Shown one piece after another: positions 8,548-26,517 of a DNA stretch of 64,000 bases. This DNA is from an uncultured Anaerolineaceae bacterium (GTDB lineage Bacteria; Chloroflexota; Anaerolineae; Anaerolineales; Anaerolineaceae), in NCBI GenBank assembly GCA_927443345.1, contig CAKMKJ010000035.1, positions 28,286 through 92,285 on the forward strand, in the 5' to 3' direction. Under the pieces are notes generated by a model. It was not told the origin of the DNA, did not search any database, and worked only from the letters and a program-made list of their open reading frames with translations. Numbering within the stretch: the first letter of the stretch is position 1; every line of letters starts with the position of its first letter. Made by a program: the position numbers and the translations under genes.

Positions 8548-10449
8548 ATGAATCATAGGGACACACTTTTCGAAAACCAGTTCATGGAATTAAAAACTCG
8601 CTTTAGAAAAGCTGGGCTTGAAGAGAAAAAATTACTGGCACTAGAATTTTCAAAATGGGCTGCTCAACAGTTAGCACAATTGGGTATAAAACCATCCACG
8701 TTCGTATTTAATGACGAATTAGGTAATTCATCAATACCCAAAAAAAACAGAATTCATCCCCAAATAAGCAGCCAGAAAATATTTGATTTTTTGGATATTC
8801 GAGCCATTGTAAACAATAATGGTCTCTTGCGGCAGATTACTGAGAATATTGTTCAAGTCATTTGGCTTCAAGATATCGAAACGAACCAAATCTTGTATAT
8901 AAGCCCTGCTTTTGAAACAGTTTGGGGTCGCTCCATTCAAGGAATGATCGCTGATCCATCTTTGATGCTAGAAAGTGTTCACCCTGAAGATCGCGTACAG
9001 GTTTTGGTCTCAAAACCTCAAATCTGCCACAAACCGATCAGTCAAATTTATCGAATAATTCGCCCCGATGGCACATTACGCTGGATACATAGCAGGGCAT
9101 TTATCATCGATGATGCCAAAGGTAAGCCTTGTTGTCATTTCCATATTGCTGAAGACACCACTGATCAAAAACAAATAGAACTTAAACTGCGAAAAACTTT
9201 GGATCGCTCTCGTGAGCAATTTGATTTAAGCCATAAAATGAGTCTTGTAAGAAAACCTGAAGCTGTTTTAAAAACGCTTATGTCTGCTCACGAATTTCAA
9301 CAGGCATTTCGCAGCGCTCTAATTTTTTTCGATGACCCGGCAGTTGGCATAGATCGTGGCGTTGAGTTTTCAGCATCATGGCAATCCAGTCAAAGTCTTC
9401 GTCCTTGGACCAATGAATTTAGTTTATATGAGGATTTGTCATTTCTGCAACTATTACAAGCAAATCAAACAGTCATTTTTTCAAATGTAAATGAAGACCC
9501 GCGATTATCACCCGATGTGCGAAAATTATTACGAGAAGAACACATAAAAATGATAATAGCCTTCCCCTTGATTGCCTTGGGAACCTGGTTGGGCTGCCTG
9601 TTGGTATATTTTCCAAAAGAACAGAATTTTGACCACATTGAATTACGACACCTAAAAATATTGATTGACCAAACGACAATTACCCTCTTCAACCTCCAAT
9701 TGCTTGAAGACGCAGAAGATTCACGGCATGAAGCAGAACGAGCGAATGAAATAAAGACTGAGTTCCTGGCGATGATCTCGCATGAACTGCGCACACCATT
9801 AACATCCATAAAGGGTTTTGCAACCACACTATTAGCTGATGATGTCATTTGGAATCCTCAAGAACAACGCGAATTCATTCAAACAATTAATCTGGAAACA
9901 ATACGACTGCAAGAACTAATAGACCATTTATTGGATCTTTCTCGTCTTGAAGCGGGAATGCTGCCCATCACTCTTGAACCGCACTCGATTTACGAAATCT
10001 TTGATGATACTGAATCACAAATCTCGATATTAACCAATGGGCATATCCTACAAAAAAATATTCCCTTGAATTTGCCCATGCTTTTGGTTGACGCAAGAAG
10101 GATTGCTCAAGTCATCGTCAATCTGGTTAAAAATTCATCAACTTATGCACCAAAAGGGACTATGATCAGCATTACTGCCAGCATCCATGGTTCATTTTTG
10201 CGGATCAACGTTAGTGATGAAGGACCTGGTATTTCACCAAGTGAATATAAAAAAGTGTTTAAAGCCTTTAAACGCGGAACAAATGCAGAACAGAAATATT
10301 TGCAAGGAGCGGGATTGGGTTTGGCCATCTGCAAAGGCCTGGTGGAAGCTCATGGAGGCCGAATTTGGATAAAAAAGAAAACGGTCATTGGAGCATCGAT
10401 TTCTTTTACTTTGCCTCTCAATTTACCAAAAAATCCAGTGATGAACTAA
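8548..10449 (+). CDS. PAS-GAF sensor histidine kinase
   Basis: PAS region (WLQDIETNQILYISPAFETVWG), GAF-like middle, H-box AMISHELRTPLTSIKG, N/G boxes VNLVKNSSTYAP, DEGPGIS, GAGLGLAICKGLVEAHGG. Confidence 0.92.
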   Translation: MNHRDTLFENQFMELKTRFRKAGLEEKKLLALEFSKWAAQQLAQLGIKPSTFVFNDELGNSSIPKKNRIHPQISSQKIFDFLDIRAIVNNNGLLRQITENIVQVIWLQDIETNQILYISPAFETVWGRSIQGMIADPSLMLESVHPEDRVQVLVSKPQICHKPISQIYRIIRPDGTLRWIHSRAFIIDDAKGKPCCHFHIAEDTTDQKQIELKLRKTLDRSREQFDLSHKMSLVRKPEAVLKTLMSAHEFQQAFRSALIFFDDPAVGIDRGVEFSASWQSSQSLRPWTNEFSLYEDLSFLQLLQANQTVIFSNVNEDPRLSPDVRKLLREEHIKMIIAFPLIALGTWLGCLLVYFPKEQNFDHIELRHLKILIDQTTITLFNLQLLEDAEDSRHEAERANEIKTEFLAMISHELRTPLTSIKGFATTLLADDVIWNPQEQREFIQTINLETIRLQELIDHLLDLSRLEAGMLPITLEPHSIYEIFDDTESQISILTNGHILQKNIPLNLPMLLVDARRIAQVIVNLVKNSSTYAPKGTMISITASIHGSFLRINVSDEGPGISPSEYKKVFKAFKRGTNAEQKYLQGAGLGLAICKGLVEAHGGRIWIKKKTVIGASISFTLPLNLPKNPVMN

Positions 10450-10467: not shown

Positions 10468-11151
10468 ATGGGAAACATACTGATAGTAGAAGATGATCCA
10501 AACATTCGCAAACTCGTGAGAGTGAACCTTGTCAAACGCGGATACACAGTCAGCGAAGCTGAAGACAGCCACACTGCCATTTCACTATTTCAAGAAATCC
10601 CTGTTGATCTTGTACTGCTTGACCTGGTCATCCCGGGGCTGTCTGGTGTGGATGTGTGCGCCTGGATCAGGGCACGTTCAGATGTGCCGATTATAATTTT
10701 GAGCGCACGCCTCGAAGAAGATCTCAAAGTCGCAGCCCTGGATGCCGGCGCAGATGATTATGTGACAAAACCCTTTGGACAAGAAGAACTGCTTGCCAGG
10801 GTTAGAGCATTTCTACGGCGCACATACATCTCCGCAAAAACGAGCGACAATCGAATTCAAATTGGTGACCTGATCATCGATCTTGAGGCTCGCAGAGTTT
10901 TTGTAGGTGAAGAAGATCTTCACCTTACTAGAACTGAATATTCAATTCTTTCAGAATTAGCCAGCAGTATGGATGGAATCGTGACCCATGATGAATTACT
11001 GGTGCGCGTGTGGGGGCCTGAATATCGGGGCTCAAACCATTACCTTCATACCTACCTCGGACGTTTACGCAAAAAGCTGGGAGATTATAACGAACTGCTA
11101 GAAACTGTTTCCGGCATGGGTTACAACCTGCACTCAAAAAAGATCTACTAA
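10468..11151 (+). CDS. OmpR/KdpE-family response regulator
   Basis: REC domain ILIVEDDPNIRKLV...LLDLVIPGLSGVDV...ADDYVTKPFG, plus C-terminal winged helix (LTRTEYSILSELASS...YLGRLRKKLG). Confidence 0.94.
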   Translation: MGNILIVEDDPNIRKLVRVNLVKRGYTVSEAEDSHTAISLFQEIPVDLVLLDLVIPGLSGVDVCAWIRARSDVPIIILSARLEEDLKVAALDAGADDYVTKPFGQEELLARVRAFLRRTYISAKTSDNRIQIGDLIIDLEARRVFVGEEDLHLTRTEYSILSELASSMDGIVTHDELLVRVWGPEYRGSNHYLHTYLGRLRKKLGDYNELLETVSGMGYNLHSKKIY

Positions 11152-11266
11152 TTCATCGATGTGCTCTTCAATTGTTGTGAACCTTTCAAGCGCAATAAAA
11201 TAGGTAACTTTTTTTTGTAACCTATCTGTGGGTTCCACCATAATATAAAATGATTTTAAAAAAAAT

Positions 11267-12080: not shown

Positions 12081-12275
12081 TTTTCCTCTTTTCAAATAAG
12101 ATGGGTTGATTTCAACATAATACCCATCCCTTCCGATATATGTCCTCAATGAAAACAAAAATATTCCTATATTTTTTGCAAGTTGCGAATAAAAAAATCC
12201 CGCTTAATTCCATACTTTTATTCAATTTCAATGATGAATCTAAAAAAAACTATATTGAGTATTTATTGAGTTAGT

Positions 12276-12309
12276 GTTTGGGACATTAATAGCCATCATC
12301 ACCTAATAT
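12276..12309 (+). promoter_or_regulatory. GGGAC promoter-like motif, copy A (upstream of DUF3494/sortase operon)
   Basis: GTTTGGGACATTAATAGCCATCATCACCTAATAT; -10-like TAATAT at 12304-12309. Confidence 0.6.
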
Positions 12310-12790
12310 GGTACTGAATCTATTCCCCAAAGAAAGGAGTGCATTTTTGACCCGGATTTTTGCCAGCCCGATTCCCATTTCAGCCCTCCGAACAAAGTAA
12401 TTATGGGAAAAGAAATTTCTTCACAAGGAATCCAGATCATAAATCGGTTTGCAAAATGACGTTACTAAAAACAAATACAAAGCGAAATGGTTGCTTGAAC
12501 AATGCCTGGTGGATTGACGACTGGACAACAAAGGTGACAAATCAGAATAAACTGAAGACAAGCCTTATGCTCCAGGAAAATGCAACAAATATTGTCTTGA
12601 AATCAAATACTGATTCAATTGCCATGATCAAGACAAGAAACTTTATCAGTGACTCATTCACATCATCAACGGGTATTGAGGGAACAGTCATTATAGGCAC
12701 AACCTCAACCGCAACAGACCTGAACGTGCATGAAACCTTGCTCAACATCCAACCACTTACTTGTATCTCAAATCAAAAAGGATGGAAGAA

Positions 12791-13735
12791 ATGAAAACAA
12801 ATAGAGTTCTAACCATTACAATCGTACTGATTCTGCTGGTCGCTGCAGCAGGAATAACCTATACCGGTGTAATTGCCAGACCTTATAGCGCTGCCACGGC
12901 TCCCGGCCTGGGAGCGGCAGGATATTATTCAATATTGGCAGGTGTATCGGCTTCCAGTGCAAATATGACTACTTTAGGTGGAAGTTTAGGAATGAGCCCA
13001 GGTATTACCTTAAACGGTCCATATTCTGTGGGCGGCTCAACAGATTTGGGTCCTGCAACGAATGCGGCAAACGCGCAAAGTGACGCATTAGGAGCTTTTG
13101 GTAACCTGGCCGGTCAGGGGTCTGATGGCACTTGGAGTATGGCGACTAGCCCTTTACCAGGTGTCTGGACAGATGCATCCAGCCCCGCATTTTCTGGAAC
13201 GCTCACGCTGACTGGTGATTATTCGGATGTCTGGGTTTTTCAGATTTCAACTGATTTCACCTTCAGTGGTGCTGTCGTAATGGCTGGAAATGCACAGGCA
13301 TGTAATGTTTTCTGGCAGGTCGCGAGTGATGCAACCATTGCATCAGGATCGTCATTTATCGGAACCTTGATTGCTTCAGGAGATATCACAGTTGTTTCAG
13401 GGGCCAACGTAAGTGGCAGAATATTGTCACTTAACGATGCTGTAACCACCGACAATAACACCATCAGCATGCCGCCATGCAATTCTGCTGCTGCTGCCGG
13501 CCCTTCTCTCCCCGACAACCCACAACCCGAAAGCGGTTCAACTGAAGCCTATGTTGGCACACAAACAGCCCTCACAGCCACAGCAATTTCAAGCAGAGCC
13601 GGTGTTCCCAGTACAGGCGGCGCACCCCTTAATGGTGATGGAACCTTATGGTTGATTTTAGGTTTTAGTGCCCTATGTGTTGTGATTCTTTTCTATCTAA
13701 CCAGAAAAATCCAACGCAACAATGGATCAAAATGA
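12791..13735 (+). CDS. Ice-binding-like (DUF3494) surface protein with C-terminal sortase-type anchor
   Basis: MKTNRVLTITIVLILLVAAAG signal; ILAGVSASSANMTTLGGSLGMSPG; QACNVFWQVASDATIASGSSFIGTLIASGDITVVSGANVSGRILSLNDAVTTDNNTI; tail VPSTGG-hydrophobic-RKIQRNNGSK. Confidence 0.87.
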   Translation: MKTNRVLTITIVLILLVAAAGITYTGVIARPYSAATAPGLGAAGYYSILAGVSASSANMTTLGGSLGMSPGITLNGPYSVGGSTDLGPATNAANAQSDALGAFGNLAGQGSDGTWSMATSPLPGVWTDASSPAFSGTLTLTGDYSDVWVFQISTDFTFSGAVVMAGNAQACNVFWQVASDATIASGSSFIGTLIASGDITVVSGANVSGRILSLNDAVTTDNNTISMPPCNSAAAAGPSLPDNPQPESGSTEAYVGTQTALTATAISSRAGVPSTGGAPLNGDGTLWLILGFSALCVVILFYLTRKIQRNNGSK

Positions 13736-14552: not shown

Positions 14553-14659
14553 GAATTATTTTTTCAAATTACCCCTTGGTTTCATTAAAGGATGTCTATT
14601 TCAACGGTTTTTGATTACCTAAAAGTTCCATTTGTATATATAGACATTTAACAGAATGT

Positions 14660-14693
14660 ATTAGGGACTTAGGTATGACCAACCCGGTAAGCT
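14660..14693 (+). promoter_or_regulatory. GGGAC promoter-like motif, copy B (upstream of Dps)
   Basis: ATTAGGGACTTAGGTATGACCAACCCGGTAAGCT; -10-like TAAGCT at 14688-14693. Confidence 0.5.
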
Positions 14694-14732
14694 GTTATTG
14701 TAGCAATAAACTATCTACATTCAGGAGGCTAC

Positions 14733-15281
14733 ATGGGACTCATCCGAAACAACGGCCACGATCCAACCGTGCCAATCCTCATCCAACCTAACATCGGTCT
14801 GGAAAGTGATGTAAGGCTGCCGATCATTAATATTCTCAATAGCATCCTTTCGAATGAGGCTGTGCTGACTTTGAAGACACGGAATGCCCATTGGAATGTG
14901 CACGGGGTAAATTTTTTTGAACTTCACATACTCTTTGATACCCAATACAAACAACTGAACGATATCTCTGATGAAATCGCAGAAAGAGTGCGAATGGTGG
15001 GTGGCGTCGCAATGGGAAGTTTTGCAGAGTATTTGACTCACACGAACCTTGCAGAAAACCCTCCCGAAGTACCAGATACCCTGCATTTATTGGCGGATCA
15101 TGAAACAATCATCCGTTATCTGCATGAAGACATCCGCAAATGCAATGATGAGTATGAAGATGAAGGCACCTCAGACCTGATGGTAAGCGTGATGCGGATG
15201 CATGAAAAAATGGCCTGGATGCTTCGATCTTATCTCGACACAGAATCAACTATCGGCGAAAGCCAGAAAAGGAATAATTAA
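14733..15281 (+). CDS. dps: Dps-family ferritin-like protein, canonical ferroxidase ligands
   Basis: LKTRNAHWNVHGVNFFELHILFDTQYKQLNDISDEIAERVRMVGGVAMGS: the His/His/Asp/Asp/Glu positions match Dps. Confidence 0.93.
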   Translation: MGLIRNNGHDPTVPILIQPNIGLESDVRLPIINILNSILSNEAVLTLKTRNAHWNVHGVNFFELHILFDTQYKQLNDISDEIAERVRMVGGVAMGSFAEYLTHTNLAENPPEVPDTLHLLADHETIIRYLHEDIRKCNDEYEDEGTSDLMVSVMRMHEKMAWMLRSYLDTESTIGESQKRNN

Positions 15282-18770: not shown

Positions 18771-18845
18771 ACCCCAAAGTCCATAATTTGAATTTTTTTT
18801 GTAAAAATATCGCACATAAACCTTTATAGTTTTTATTTAGTTTGT

Positions 18846-18879
18846 TTTAGGGACTTAAATAGCCTAATTCTCATATGAT
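18846..18879 (+). promoter_or_regulatory. GGGAC promoter-like motif, copy C (upstream of triple-PAS hybrid kinase operon)
   Basis: TTTAGGGACTTAAATAGCCTAATTCTCATATGAT; -10-like TATGAT at 18874-18879. Confidence 0.6.
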
Positions 18880-18924
18880 TTTAATTGACGTCATATCGGG
18901 CACTATATTTTATTGAGGCTATTA

Positions 18925-21906
18925 ATGATAAAAAACACAGACTCAAAAATAAAAATATCTGGCGATGTAAAGCCAACAATAATTAGCAGTTTACAAAGTC
19001 AGGAAACTCACAAAATTACTGGGGCATTACAGAATGCCATATTTAACAGCGCTAACTTTTCAAGTATCGCAACGGACGCAAAAGGAATCATCCAAATTTT
19101 TAACGTCGGAGCTGAAAAGATGCTCGGCTATGATGCGGAGGATGTTGTCAATAAAAAAACGCCGGCAGATATCTCAGATCCTTTCGAGCTCATTTCTCGT
19201 GCAAAATCGTTAAGTTTGGAGCGCTCAACACCCATCACCCCCGGGTTCGAGGCTTTAGTTTTCAAGGCATCACGCGGCATCGAAGACATCTACGAGTTAA
19301 CTTATATTCGCAAAGACGGCAGCCGCTTTCCGGCAATTGTATCGGTCACTGCTTTACGAGACGAAACAGAAGAAATTATCGGATACCTGTTGATCGGCAC
19401 CGATAATACAGCTCGAAAACAAGCAGAAGAAGCATTACTCAAAGCCGGCGCTCTGCAAAATGCAATCTTTTACAGCGCTAACTTTTCAAGCATAGCAACG
19501 GATGCCAAAGGAATAATTCAAATTTTCAACGTCGGGGCAGAACGCATGCTTGGATACGAGGCAGATGAAGTGGTCAACACCAAGACCCCGGCAGATATTT
19601 CCGATCCTCAAGAATTAATCACCCGCGCCAAAACCTTGAGCCTGGAACTTTCAACAAATATTAAACCCGGTTTTGAAGCTCTGGTTTTTAAGGCCTCTCG
19701 TGGCATTGAAGACATTTATGAATTGACCTATATCCGCAAAGATGGCAGCCGCTTTCCGGCTATGGTCTCAGTGACTGCGCTACGTGACGACCAGGGAGGA
19801 ATCATTGGCTTTCTTCTCATTGGCACAGATAACACTGCTCGAAAACAAGCTGAAGAAAATCTGCTAAAAGCAGGGGCTTTGCAAGATGCCATCTTTAAAA
19901 GTGCAAATTTTTCAAGCATTGCCACAGATGAAAAAGGGGTAATTCAAATTTTCAACGTGGGTGCTGAGCGCATGCTGGGTTACGCAGCCGCAGATGTAAT
20001 GAACAAGATAACACCGGCAGACATTTCAGATCCGGTTGAAGTCATTGCACGGGCAAAATCCTTGAGCGTTGAACTCTCAACACCCATCACGCCAGGTTTC
20101 GAAGCCCTGGTATTCAAAGCATCGCGTGGAATTGAAGATATCTATGAATTGACCTACATCCGCAAAGACGGCAGCAGGTTCCCGGCTATTGTTTCAGTTA
20201 CTGCTTTAAGAGACCCCCAGGGTGACATTATCGGTTATCTGTTGATCGGCACCGATAATACCGCTCGTAAACAGATTGAAGAAGAACAAAAAATTCTCAG
20301 CCAGCGCTTGCGCGACCAACAATTTTATACACGCTCACTCTTTGAAGCCAATATAGACGCACTCATGACCACCGATCCTTTTGGTATCTTGACAGATGTC
20401 AACAAACAAATGGAAGCCCTCACTGGATGCACACGGGATGAGCTAATAGGTGCACCTTTCAGGAATTATTTTACTGATCCTGACCGGGCAGAAATGGGGG
20501 TCAAGCAGGTGTTAAGTGAAAAGAAAATTACTAATTATGAATTAACAGCGCGAGCCAGAGACGGAAGAGAAACCATCGTTTCTTATAATGCTACTACCTT
20601 CTATGACCGCAACCGTAAGTTACAAGGCATGTTCGCTGCTGCGAGAGATGTCACAGAACGTCATCGATTGGATGAAGTTTTGGAAGAAAAAAATAGCGAA
20701 TTAGTAATTGCCAAAACCGCATCTGAAAAGGCCAACCTGGCGAAATCTGAGTTTCTATCCAGTATGAGTCACGAGTTGCGCAGCCCTTTAAATGCCATTT
20801 TAGGGTTCGCTCAATTGCTAGAAACTGATACTCAGCCCTTGTCTTCAGTGCAAAAACAGAATATCGCACAAATCCTCCAGGCTGGATGGCATCTTTTAAA
20901 ATTGATTGATGAAATTCTGGATCTTGCAAAAGTGGAATCCGGACAGGTTCCACTCTCACCAGAACCTGTTTCGCTAGCAGAGGTATTTCTTGAATGTCAA
21001 AGTATGGTTGAATCACAATCAAAGCAATTTGGCATCCAGTTAATTTTTCCGAAATTTGAAAAACCGGTTTTTGTCAGAGCGGATCGCATCAGAATTATCC
21101 AGGTGATTACCAATCTGCTTTCAAATGCCATCAAATACAACAAACCTTTGGGAATTGTCGAAATCAGTTGTACAAAACGAACCCCTGGTCGTGTGCGCAT
21201 CAGCATCAGTGATACCGGTAATGGATTGACCACCTCAGAAATTTCGCAATTGTTTCAGTCATTTAACCGTCTAGGCCAGGAAAGTACCGGCGTTGAGGGG
21301 ACGGGTATCGGATTGGTAGTTGCAAAACGATTGATAGAACTCATGGGTGGTGAGATTGGGGTTGACAGCGTGATCGGCAAAGGAAGTATCTTCTGGTTTG
21401 AGTTAATTTCAATCAAAGAACCGCATCTCTTTAGTGAAGCGAATGAGGATGAAGATAAGGGAAAACCACCTCGATTCCGAAAAAACAGAAAACACACATT
21501 GCTCTATATTGAAGACAACCCTGCAAACTTGACATTAGTCGAACAAATTTTCATGCGATACCCTGATTTAACCCTGATCACTGCGATCACAGGTAAAGCA
21601 GGTGTCGAAATGGCAATTAAATCGCTTCCAGATGCGATATTAATGGATATCAATTTGCCTGATATCAGTGGATTTGAAGCTTTGAAAATGCTGCACCTTA
21701 ATCCGTTAACTTCTCATATTCCAGTCATGGCACTCAGTGCCAGCGCTATGCCGAGAGATATTCAAAAGGGTCTTGAATCTGGATTTTTCAGATACATTAC
21801 CAAACCCATCAAGGTCAACGATTTTATTTCATCACTCGATTTTGCCCTGGAATACGCAGACCATAACCTTGAGAATAATAAACTAAAAGTGAAAGAAACA
21901 TCATGA
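18925..21906 (+). CDS. Hybrid sensor kinase: three tandem PAS repeats, a fourth PAS, HisKA/HATPase and C-terminal REC
   Basis: Three 142-aa PAS units; H-box SSMSHELRSPLNAILG; DTGNGL, GTGIGLVVAKRLIELMGG; REC LLYIEDNPANLTLVE...ILMDINLPDISG...RYITKPI. ATG 18925 preferred over the track's non-ATG start. Confidence 0.93.
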   Translation: MIKNTDSKIKISGDVKPTIISSLQSQETHKITGALQNAIFNSANFSSIATDAKGIIQIFNVGAEKMLGYDAEDVVNKKTPADISDPFELISRAKSLSLERSTPITPGFEALVFKASRGIEDIYELTYIRKDGSRFPAIVSVTALRDETEEIIGYLLIGTDNTARKQAEEALLKAGALQNAIFYSANFSSIATDAKGIIQIFNVGAERMLGYEADEVVNTKTPADISDPQELITRAKTLSLELSTNIKPGFEALVFKASRGIEDIYELTYIRKDGSRFPAMVSVTALRDDQGGIIGFLLIGTDNTARKQAEENLLKAGALQDAIFKSANFSSIATDEKGVIQIFNVGAERMLGYAAADVMNKITPADISDPVEVIARAKSLSVELSTPITPGFEALVFKASRGIEDIYELTYIRKDGSRFPAIVSVTALRDPQGDIIGYLLIGTDNTARKQIEEEQKILSQRLRDQQFYTRSLFEANIDALMTTDPFGILTDVNKQMEALTGCTRDELIGAPFRNYFTDPDRAEMGVKQVLSEKKITNYELTARARDGRETIVSYNATTFYDRNRKLQGMFAAARDVTERHRLDEVLEEKNSELVIAKTASEKANLAKSEFLSSMSHELRSPLNAILGFAQLLETDTQPLSSVQKQNIAQILQAGWHLLKLIDEILDLAKVESGQVPLSPEPVSLAEVFLECQSMVESQSKQFGIQLIFPKFEKPVFVRADRIRIIQVITNLLSNAIKYNKPLGIVEISCTKRTPGRVRISISDTGNGLTTSEISQLFQSFNRLGQESTGVEGTGIGLVVAKRLIELMGGEIGVDSVIGKGSIFWFELISIKEPHLFSEANEDEDKGKPPRFRKNRKHTLLYIEDNPANLTLVEQIFMRYPDLTLITAITGKAGVEMAIKSLPDAILMDINLPDISGFEALKMLHLNPLTSHIPVMALSASAMPRDIQKGLESGFFRYITKPIKVNDFISSLDFALEYADHNLENNKLKVKETS
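19021..20298 (+). repeat. Three in-frame 426-bp coding repeats (PAS modules)
   Basis: GALQ(N/D)AIF units begin at 19021, 19447 and 19873, exactly 426 bp apart. Confidence 0.9.
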
Positions 21907-23995: not shown

Positions 23996-24135
23996 CACCC
24001 TAGCCTGCCTCAATTGTCAGATCACAGGGTAAATCTGTTTAACGGAATTACTTTTATTAGAATCATTTCTGAAAAATGATCCGCTTTCATCATCCCTAAT
24101 GCCAAAAATCGATTGATAGGAAATATATAGGCAAT

Positions 24136-24169
24136 GTTAGGGACATAGATAGCCCTTTTCTCTTAGTAT
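24136..24169 (+). promoter_or_regulatory. GGGAC promoter-like motif, copy D (upstream of divergent Dps paralog)
   Basis: GTTAGGGACATAGATAGCCCTTTTCTCTTAGTAT; -10-like TAGTAT at 24164-24169. Confidence 0.6.
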
Positions 24170-24244
24170 TTTATTGTATCAAAAACACAACTGAGAACCT
24201 CCAAACATCCAGCTTAACTGGAAGAAATGAGGAAAGGATCCTGT

Positions 24245-24766
24245 ATGAGTCTCAAAGAAAAACAGCAAACCATATTACAAGTTGCGAATTCTCCATATAG
24301 ATTAATTGAAGACTCAAACAATCCACAAAAAATATTTGAAATTCTAAACCATGCAATTGCAGATGAAGCCGTAATAAGCATGAAAACAAAAAATGCAAAA
24401 TGGAATTTGTGTAGAGATGGTTTCTCAGATTTGTGCAACATTTACGAGATCCACCTTATCCAAATAAATGAAATTGCGGTCGAGCTCGCTGATCGCGCAC
24501 GGATGCTGCATTTTCAGCCCATAGGAAGTATTTCAGATTTCCTTGCCCATTCCAGGCTTTCTGAAACTCCCGGGATCGTTCCAGATGCTTTTCAATTACT
24601 TTCGGATCACGAAAGCATCATCCGTTTTTTTCGAGAAGATTTTCGAGATTGCAAAAACATTTATGAAGAAATTTGCACATCACAAGTACTAATAAAAAGC
24701 ATTCGTCTGCACGAAAAAATGGCCTGGATGCTTCGATCATTTAGTAAAAAAAGAGAAAATCATTGA
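24245..24766 (+). CDS. Dps-like paralog with substituted ferroxidase ligands
   Basis: SMKTKNAKWNLCRDGFSDLCNIYEIHLIQINEIAVELADRARML...LLSDHESIIRFFREDFRDCKN...RLHEKMAWMLRSF aligns with the Dps at 14733. ATG 24245 has AGGAAAGG upstream. Confidence 0.85.
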   Translation: MSLKEKQQTILQVANSPYRLIEDSNNPQKIFEILNHAIADEAVISMKTKNAKWNLCRDGFSDLCNIYEIHLIQINEIAVELADRARMLHFQPIGSISDFLAHSRLSETPGIVPDAFQLLSDHESIIRFFREDFRDCKNIYEEICTSQVLIKSIRLHEKMAWMLRSFSKKRENH

Positions 24767-24848: not shown

Positions 24849-25064
24849 ATGAATAAAGATATTTTTGAAGGTAAATGGAAACAAATTAGTGGAGAAGCAA
24901 AATCATGGTGGGGGAAACTTACCGATGATGATGTGAAACAAGCAGCCGGTAAATTAGACGTGTTCGCCGGAATTCTGCAAGAGAAATACGGCTATACCCA
25001 TGAGCGCGCAGTTGAAGAAATAGATAAAAGAGTTACCGAGTTTGAAAAAAATTTGAAGAAATAA
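24849..25064 (+). CDS. CsbD family stress protein
   Basis: IFEGKWKQISGEAKSWWGKLTDDDVKQAAGKLDVFAGILQEKYGYTHERAVEEIDKRV. Confidence 0.95.
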   Translation: MNKDIFEGKWKQISGEAKSWWGKLTDDDVKQAAGKLDVFAGILQEKYGYTHERAVEEIDKRVTEFEKNLKK

Positions 25065-25146: not shown

Positions 25147-25401
25147 ATGAATGTTCTAATTTATTTGATTGCTGCCGCTGTAATTGGATGGGTTGCCACC
25201 GAGATCATGCGCGACCGACAAAGTTTGTTGATTAATATTGTTATTGCGATCGTTGGCGCTTTCCTTGCCGGGTATTTCATCAGCCCCCTTCTCAATATTG
25301 GGACGATCAATGATGCCATTACTCTCCCGACAATGTTCGTCACCCTTTTAGGTTCGCTAATCTTAATCATCATTGTGAGAGCAATAAGGCGAAGAAGGTA
25401 A
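25147..25401 (+). CDS. GlsB/YeaQ/YmgE family membrane protein (second paralog)
   Basis: MNVLIYLIAAAVIGWVATEIMRDRQSLLINIVIAIVGAFLAGYF. Confidence 0.88.
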   Translation: MNVLIYLIAAAVIGWVATEIMRDRQSLLINIVIAIVGAFLAGYFISPLLNIGTINDAITLPTMFVTLLGSLILIIIVRAIRRRR

Positions 25402-26109: not shown

Positions 26110-26517
26110 ATGAAAAACGAAGTTGGTCTGTGGGTTGATCATCGCAAGGCGGTCATTGTTACTCTTGAAAACCAGAGAGAGACCGTTCAAATCATATTGT
26201 CGACCATTGAAAAAAGAACCCGTTTCTCAATTGGCTCACATTCAGACACACCAAAAAACTTAACTGGTGCAATTGCTGAAGAGACTCGAGATCGCCAATA
26301 TATTGTACATTTGGGAAAATATTTTTCAGAAATAGCCTTTAAAATCCGGGCAGCCGACTCAATTTTTCTCTTTGGTCCTGGTGAAGCCAAGATCCAGTTT
26401 GCAGCCTACCTTAAAAAAGAAAAGCTTGACGGAAAAATTGCAACCATTGATTCTGTTGATAAGATGACCGACCGCCAGATTTTCACAAAGATGCATGATT
26501 ACTTTGTTCATGCTTAA
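26110..26517 (+). CDS. eRF1-like / translational-machinery-like stress protein
   Basis: VGLWVDHRKAVIV...IFLFGPGEAKIQFAAYLKKEKLDGKIATIDSVDKMTDRQIF pattern. Confidence 0.6.
   Translation: MKNEVGLWVDHRKAVIVTLENQRETVQIILSTIEKRTRFSIGSHSDTPKNLTGAIAEETRDRQYIVHLGKYFSEIAFKIRAADSIFLFGPGEAKIQFAAYLKKEKLDGKIATIDSVDKMTDRQIFTKMHDYFVHA

What the first reader, a model, noticed from the sequence alone, without database searches (positions are those of the whole stretch)
24245..24766. Second Dps paralog has lost every canonical ferroxidase ligand
Aligned to the Dps at 14733 (AHW...ELHILFD...DISDEIAER), this protein reads AKW...DLCNIYE...EIAVELADR. The five known Dps ferroxidase positions change: His to Lys, His to Cys, Asp to Glu, Asp to Val, Glu to Asp. 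The rest of the fold signature (SDHESIIRFFREDFRDC, RLHEKMAWMLRSF) and the shared promoter motif remain. Inference: a non-catalytic or differently liganded Dps acting as DNA-binding, structural or heteromeric partner.
Basis: partly seen in the sequence, partly recalled or inferred. Interest (0 to 1): 0.66.

Follow-up and report, generated by a model that had tools for sequence, protein, structure and literature searches.

The report
Dps paralog without its iron-oxidising site
Next to a normal iron-detoxifying DNA-protection protein (Dps), this Anaerolineae bacterium carries a second Dps, apparently under the same promoter, that has lost its iron-oxidising site, and many relatives have lost the site repeatedly, some in every Dps that was found.

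Summary
Window 24245-24763 encodes a 173-aa Dps-fold protein, 42% identical to the Dps at 14733, with all five ferroxidase positions changed: H31K, H43C, D47E, D58V, E62D (L. innocua numbering). Two changes keep a carboxylate, and position 47 varies in ordinary Dps. So "lost every ligand" means both His and one Asp are truly gone. A syntenic ortholog (UBA8523, 59% identity) shares K/C/E but has D and S at 58/62. The degraded gene is relaxed (dN/dS 0.36 against 0.044 for the intact paralog in the same genome pair) yet still purified (2dlnL=18 against neutrality), so it is not simply decaying.

It is one case of a wider pattern. A Dps clan restricted to this family-level group lies in a stress island next to one response regulator (26 of 28 clan genomes, 0 of 119 others). 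Nearly all copies share a promoter box. Ligands changed state at least 7 times on the tree, and five genomes hold no intact Dps that I could find. Best reading: a co-regulated, ferroxidase-dead, structural or DNA-condensing Dps. A remodelled metal site has no support; a heteromeric role is possible but untested. One relative (G028) has two Dps with reciprocally broken half-sites. No protein was made.

The parts
24245..24766 (+). Dps2: ferroxidase-degraded Dps paralog, 173 aa
24398..24400 (+). codon of K52 (canonical His31)
24434..24436 (+). codon of C64 (canonical His43)
24446..24448 (+). codon of E68 (canonical Asp47; position variable in ordinary Dps)
24479..24481 (+). codon of V79 (canonical Asp58)
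24491..24493 (+). codon of D83 (canonical Glu62)
24129..24184 (+). promoter/operator box of Dps2 (TTAGGGACATAGATAGC...TAGTAT)
14733..15281 (+). Dps1: intact paralog (H, H, D, D, E)
14653..14708 (+). promoter/operator box of Dps1
18839..18894 (+). same box upstream of the PAS-repeat histidine kinase (18913)
12269..12324 (+). weaker copy of the box upstream of the ice-binding-like/sortase genes
10468..11151 (+). OmpR-type response regulator whose orthologs (75% or more identity) mark the Dps-clan genomes; likely regulator of the box (inferred)
8548..10449 (+). PAS/GAF histidine kinase next to that regulator
24849..25064 (+). CsbD-like stress protein directly downstream of Dps2
25147..25401 (+). 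GlsB/YeaQ-type (Transgly_assoc) small membrane protein

Best explanation
Dps2 is a genuine Dps-fold subunit that is apparently transcribed together with the intact Dps1 from the same stress promoter box, but it can no longer form the di-iron ferroxidase centre, because both His ligands and Asp58 are gone. It most likely works as a structural, DNA-coating or condensing Dps, as its own cage or mixed into Dps1 cages, while Dps1 does the iron/peroxide chemistry. Shown: the ligand loss, predicted fold, shared box, synteny, relaxed-but-purifying selection, and repeated loss in relatives. Inferred: lack of activity, cage assembly, DNA binding, and control by the island's response regulator.
For: Ligands. 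Fold: AF2 pLDDT 90, with the short BC helix seen in Dps and an N-terminal helix 3-14 of lower confidence; best PDB hits are Dps cages, top 8ff9, TM 0.86 on the target. Selection: omega 0.355 (0.234-0.479) for Dps2 against 0.044 (0.027-0.071) for Dps1, G000 against G013, 2dlnL=18.1 against omega=1. Within Dps2 the ferroxidase segment is 0.67 and its flanks 0.23 and 0.31, 2dlnL 9.6, df 2; in Dps1 the same segment is 0.015. Across the clan the least retained of 52 otherwise invariant columns are H43 (0.24), H31 (0.48) and D58 (0.48), against a mean of 0.86 for non-ligand columns. Groups chosen by loss of one ligand also lose the others (p 0.001-0.035). Kept throughout: L35, N36, E42, E124, H157, E158, L164, R165 of Dps1 numbering. 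Same promoter box. The net charge of core and C-terminal tail is less negative in Dps2 (core -4 against -11, C-tail +2 against -1), which suits DNA contact.
Against: No protein, expression or DNA-binding data. The N-terminal tail is charge-neutral, not Lys-rich, and lacks the QPNIGL motif of most clan members. The constraint is much weaker than on Dps1, so the gene may matter little. One search is partly circular, because the degraded group was defined by its ligands; one search is the check. Only one ortholog exists for the direct comparison. From memory, the L. innocua H31G-H43G mutant (PDB 2bjy, listed) still oxidises some iron, so His loss alone need not abolish activity.
Confidence: 0.6

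Rival explanations
1. Dps2 is a silent subunit of mixed cages, like ferritin L chain with H chain: it co-assembles with Dps1 and dilutes or tunes the number of active centres.
For: Same promoter box as Dps1, dimer-interface centre built from two subunits (PMC6675082, PMC9140674), two Dps in one island in many relatives. In G167 the partner is intact and the second copy keeps the acid half (YID|DE).
Against: In G109, G111 and G118 both island copies are degraded and no intact Dps was found to pair with. Dps1 and Dps2 are only 42% identical.
Confidence: 0.3
2. Dps2 is a duplicate on its way out: relaxed selection with slow decay and no retained function.
For: dN/dS 8 times higher than Dps1; ferroxidase segment 0.67; a third copy in G066 is a truncated remnant that still has its promoter.
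Against: omega=1 is rejected in two genome pairs (2dlnL 18.1 and 15.7). Frames stay open over 40% divergence. Degraded clades span genera, e.g. G109_b/G111_b/G164_b with support 97/96. Box and synteny are kept.
Confidence: 0.2
3. Dps2 has a remodelled metal site (Lys/Cys/Glu, perhaps other metals) rather than no site.
For: K31, C43, E47 and a His two residues after position 47 are shared by the two orthologs. His-type ferroxidase centres are known in cyanobacteria (PMC6675082).
Against: Positions 58/62 are V/D in one ortholog and D/S in the other; three of three shared at 59% identity is not significant; the segment is the most relaxed in the gene.
Confidence: 0.06

Closest known systems
Canonical Dps (E. 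coli, L. innocua, P. aeruginosa PA0962)
   Same: Fold, helix order including the short BC helix, HEKxAWMLRS C-terminal helix, PF00210 match.
   Different: His31, His43 and Asp58 absent; Glu62 replaced by Asp.
Deinococcus geothermalis Dgeo_0257/DgDps1 pair (PMC9820295)
   Same: Two Dps-like proteins in one genome, one lacking the ferroxidase residues yet multimeric and binding DNA about six times better.
   Different: Dgeo_0257 is only 11.5% identical to its partner and its origin is unclear; here the two are clear paralogs (42%) sharing a promoter box.
Lactococcus lactis DpsA/DpsB
   Same: From memory: lack canonical ferroxidase residues. PMC13319912: N-terminal helices mediate DNA binding. 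Dps2 is predicted to have an N-terminal helix too.
   Different: Not compared by sequence here; no paired intact Dps recalled.
His-type ferroxidase Dps (Nostoc NpDps4, T. elongatus DpsA; PMC6675082)
   Same: Dps with altered ferroxidase ligands.
   Different: There the canonical Asp is replaced by a metal-binding His and activity remains; here ligands are lost without a consistent replacement.
Ferritin H/L chains (from memory)
   Same: Active and silent paralogs in one protein family.
   Different: 24-mers of animals; co-assembly here is untested.

Membership tests
Dps (dodecameric ferritin) | Ferritin-like four-helix fold with a short BC helix | tested here: met
   PF00210 39.1 bits, cut-off 24.5; AF2 pLDDT 90, best PDB matches all Dps
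Dps (dodecameric ferritin) | Ferroxidase ligands H31, H43, D/E47, D58, E62 at the dimer interface | tested here: not met
   K, C, E, V, D
Dps (dodecameric ferritin) | Assembly into a 12-subunit cage | not testable with these tools
   No multimer modelling or protein
Dps (dodecameric ferritin) | Non-specific DNA binding (not universal) | not testable with these tools
   Only tail charge computed
Dps (dodecameric ferritin) | Fe(II)/H2O2 ferroxidase activity | not testable with these tools
   Predicted absent from ligand loss
Silent heteromeric subunit (ferritin L-like) | Co-assembly with an active paralog | not testable with these tools
   Shared box only makes it possible
Silent heteromeric subunit (ferritin L-like) | An intact partner is present in the same genome | tested here: inconclusive
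   Present in G000, G013, G066, G069, G167; not found in G109, G111, G118, G028, G166
Pseudogene | Neutral evolution or broken frame | tested here: not met
   Open frame; omega 0.355, CI 0.234-0.479, 2dlnL 18.1 against 1
His-type ferroxidase Dps | Asp58 replaced by a metal-binding His | tested here: not met
   Val in Dps2

The most novel reading that the evidence does not exclude
In these Anaerolineae a regulon-specific Dps clan is shedding the ferroxidase centre altogether: iron chemistry is dispensable and the selected function is structural (DNA or nucleoid). In at least one lineage (G028) the two island paralogs have become obligate partners with reciprocal half-sites (Y,Q,E|D,E and H,H,D|A,Q), so that only the heterodimer carries an intact centre, and only one per dimer.
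Probability: 0.15. Interest if true: 0.8.

Novelty: new variant of a known kind. Interest (0 to 1): 0.5.

Why it matters
Recent papers still state that all Dps family members possess ferroxidase centres (e.g. the introduction of PMC13319912), so the two Dps functions, iron chemistry and DNA protection, are hard to separate in nature. A clan in which the centre was lost several times while the fold, promoter box and island stayed gives a natural series for asking which function is selected. It also offers paired active and dead paralogs in one genome for testing mixed cages, and G028 offers a half-site complementation test.

Tried and rejected
Shifted-but-retained ligands: rejected, the segment aligns without gaps.

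New metal site: no consistent replacement residues.

Assembly error or frameshift: rejected, a syntenic ortholog exists in UBA8523.

Pure pseudogene: omega=1 rejected.

Half-site complementation as a general rule: only G028 shows it among five genomes whose two island copies are both degraded.

dS was saturated for G109_b/G111_b and G109_b/G164_b, so those omegas are not used. A second region test (G066_b/G069_b) did not show relaxation focused on the ferroxidase segment.

Full report
What is there. The window lies in a 3.67 Mb draft genome (98.8% complete). Its nearest named relative with the same gene is the Anaerolineaceae MAG UBA8523, handle G013. The ORF 24245-24766 (+) encodes 173 aa; the start is set by AGGAAAGGA just upstream. 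It matches PF00210 (39.1 bits) and Dps1 at 14733 (42%, E=1e-45). The canonical Dps centre is two His and one Asp of one monomer and one Asp and one Glu of the facing monomer (PMC6675082; E. coli H51, H63, D67 with D78, E82, PMC9140674). Dps1 has all five; Dps2 has K52, C64, E68, V79, D83. In 42 Dps from viral contigs the positions 31, 43, 58 and 62 are invariant, while 47 is not. So three changes are radical, one (E62D) is mild, and one (D47E) is within normal variation.

Is it chance or noise? The frame is open, and the ortholog in G013 (59% identity) sits in the same order: ice-binding-like, sortase, Dps1, YggT, GlsB, DAGK, PAP2, PAS kinase, HD-GYP regulator, GGDEF, Dps2, CsbD, GlsB, AI-2E. 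It has K, C, E, D, S at the five positions. Pairwise codon models over the same genome pair give omega 0.044 for Dps1 and 0.355 for Dps2; both are significantly below 1. Within Dps2 the ferroxidase segment has omega 0.67 and the flanks 0.23 and 0.31 (2dlnL 9.6, df 2), against 0.015 in the same segment of Dps1. A second pair, G066/G069, repeats the overall difference (0.132 and 0.369) but not the focus on that segment.

Wider pattern. A search of 147 genomes of the same family-level group found related Dps in 36; 28 carry the clan marked by an N-terminal QPNIGL motif in most of its members. No clan member appeared outside this group among 400 genomes of the order; only ordinary Dps at weaker scores. 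Many genomes hold two copies in one neighbourhood, with ligand strings such as YQEDE+HHDAQ (G028), HRGNE+HRNED (G118), YRGDE+NQNRE (G111), HYEDE+DQDKE (G109), DHDHE+KQSQE (G164), HHDDE+HRSEE (G066, G069), HHEDE+YIDDE (G167); G166 has a single copy, HGDNE. On a tree built without the ligand columns the intact/degraded state changes at least 7 times. Fourteen inner branches are weak, and the placement of the long Dps2 branch beside the outgroup may be a long-branch effect. A search for all PF00210 members found no intact Dps in G028, G118, G111, G109 and G166 (completeness 93-99%); the other hits there are ferritin- or bacterioferritin-type, and G164 has a separate intact Dps. A missing contig could hide one.

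What is lost and what is kept. Of 52 columns conserved in intact members, H43, H31 and D58 are the least retained in degraded ones (0.24, 0.48, 0.48; mean of non-ligand columns 0.86). Because the groups were defined by ligands, I repeated the test leaving out each defining ligand in turn; the remaining ligands are still lost more than other columns (p 0.001-0.035, no correction for relatedness). The AF2 model of Dps2, built with 45 sequences, has pLDDT 90 and the Dps helix order; its best PDB matches are all Dps.

Regulation. A 50-odd-base box, AG.t.gTaTTaGGGAC.T.GaTAGc.c.tttc..aTA.gAT..TAtTGtag, stands upstream of nearly all clan genes, intact or degraded. In the own genome a 33-base core has six sites at up to 3 mismatches, none with the pattern reversed; four are in this window, including those of Dps1 and Dps2. 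The motif matrix was built from Dps promoters, so high scores there are by construction; the hits at 12269 and 18839 are independent. Orthologs of the OmpR-type regulator at 10468 (75% identity or more) occur in 26 of 147 genomes, all of them clan genomes. The two clan genomes without a hit have the Dps near a contig end, and none of the other 119 has one (Fisher p=7e-27, not corrected for relatedness). I infer that this regulator reads the box; binding is untested.

How it most likely works. Stress switches the island on and Dps1 and Dps2 are made together. Dps1 oxidises iron; Dps2 cannot, and adds cage or DNA-coating mass, alone or mixed with Dps1. In relatives without any intact copy the clan must act without canonical ferroxidation, if it acts at all. 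Known precedent: D. geothermalis Dgeo_0257, a ferroxidase-less DNA binder beside an active Dps (PMC9820295); a paper on Streptomyces Dps says that not all Dps have ferroxidase activity (PMC3613396); Lactococcus DpsA/DpsB are similar from memory.

Half-sites. In G028 one copy has lost the His side and keeps D58/E62, the other keeps H, H, D and has lost D58/E62. A heterodimer would hold one complete and one empty centre. This is one of five genomes with two degraded island copies, so chance is not excluded. It is a testable lead, not a claim.

Noticed in passing
L127 (G000:C18 near 8882), box at L127:1541 -; genes 1083-1406 and 445-1083 -: The same promoter box stands before a small rubrerythrin/EncFtn-like protein and an Fe/Mn superoxide dismutase, suggesting an oxidative-stress regulon beyond the island.
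   Followed up: partly
L128 (G000:C28 near 27828), box at L128:1493 +: The box also precedes a short lipoprotein-like ORF and a putative neutral zinc metallopeptidase (PF04228).
   Followed up: partly
window 12269-13735: Weaker copy of the box upstream of an ice-binding-like protein (PF11999) with a sortase gene behind it; G066 and G069 have similar genes with strong boxes.
   Followed up: partly
window 18913-21906: Histidine kinase with three nearly identical tandem PAS units (ALQ.AIF.SANFSSIATD.KG...), under the same box.
   Followed up: no
L044:1781-2227 (+): Third Dps copy in G066, shortened by a deletion, still with a high-scoring promoter box: a likely remnant.
   Followed up: partly
L043:6550-7143 and 10670-11233 (-): G028 pair with reciprocal half-site losses (HHD|AQ and YQE|DE).
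   Followed up: partly
L133-L212: At least 116 stretches of IMG/VR contigs encode Dps relatives (80 fetched); the 42 distinct ones aligned all have intact H31, H43, D58 and E62.
   Followed up: partly
window 26110-26517: A 135-aa protein without a Pfam match (VGLWVDHRKAVIV...) recurs in the island with its own box in G066 and G069.
   Followed up: no
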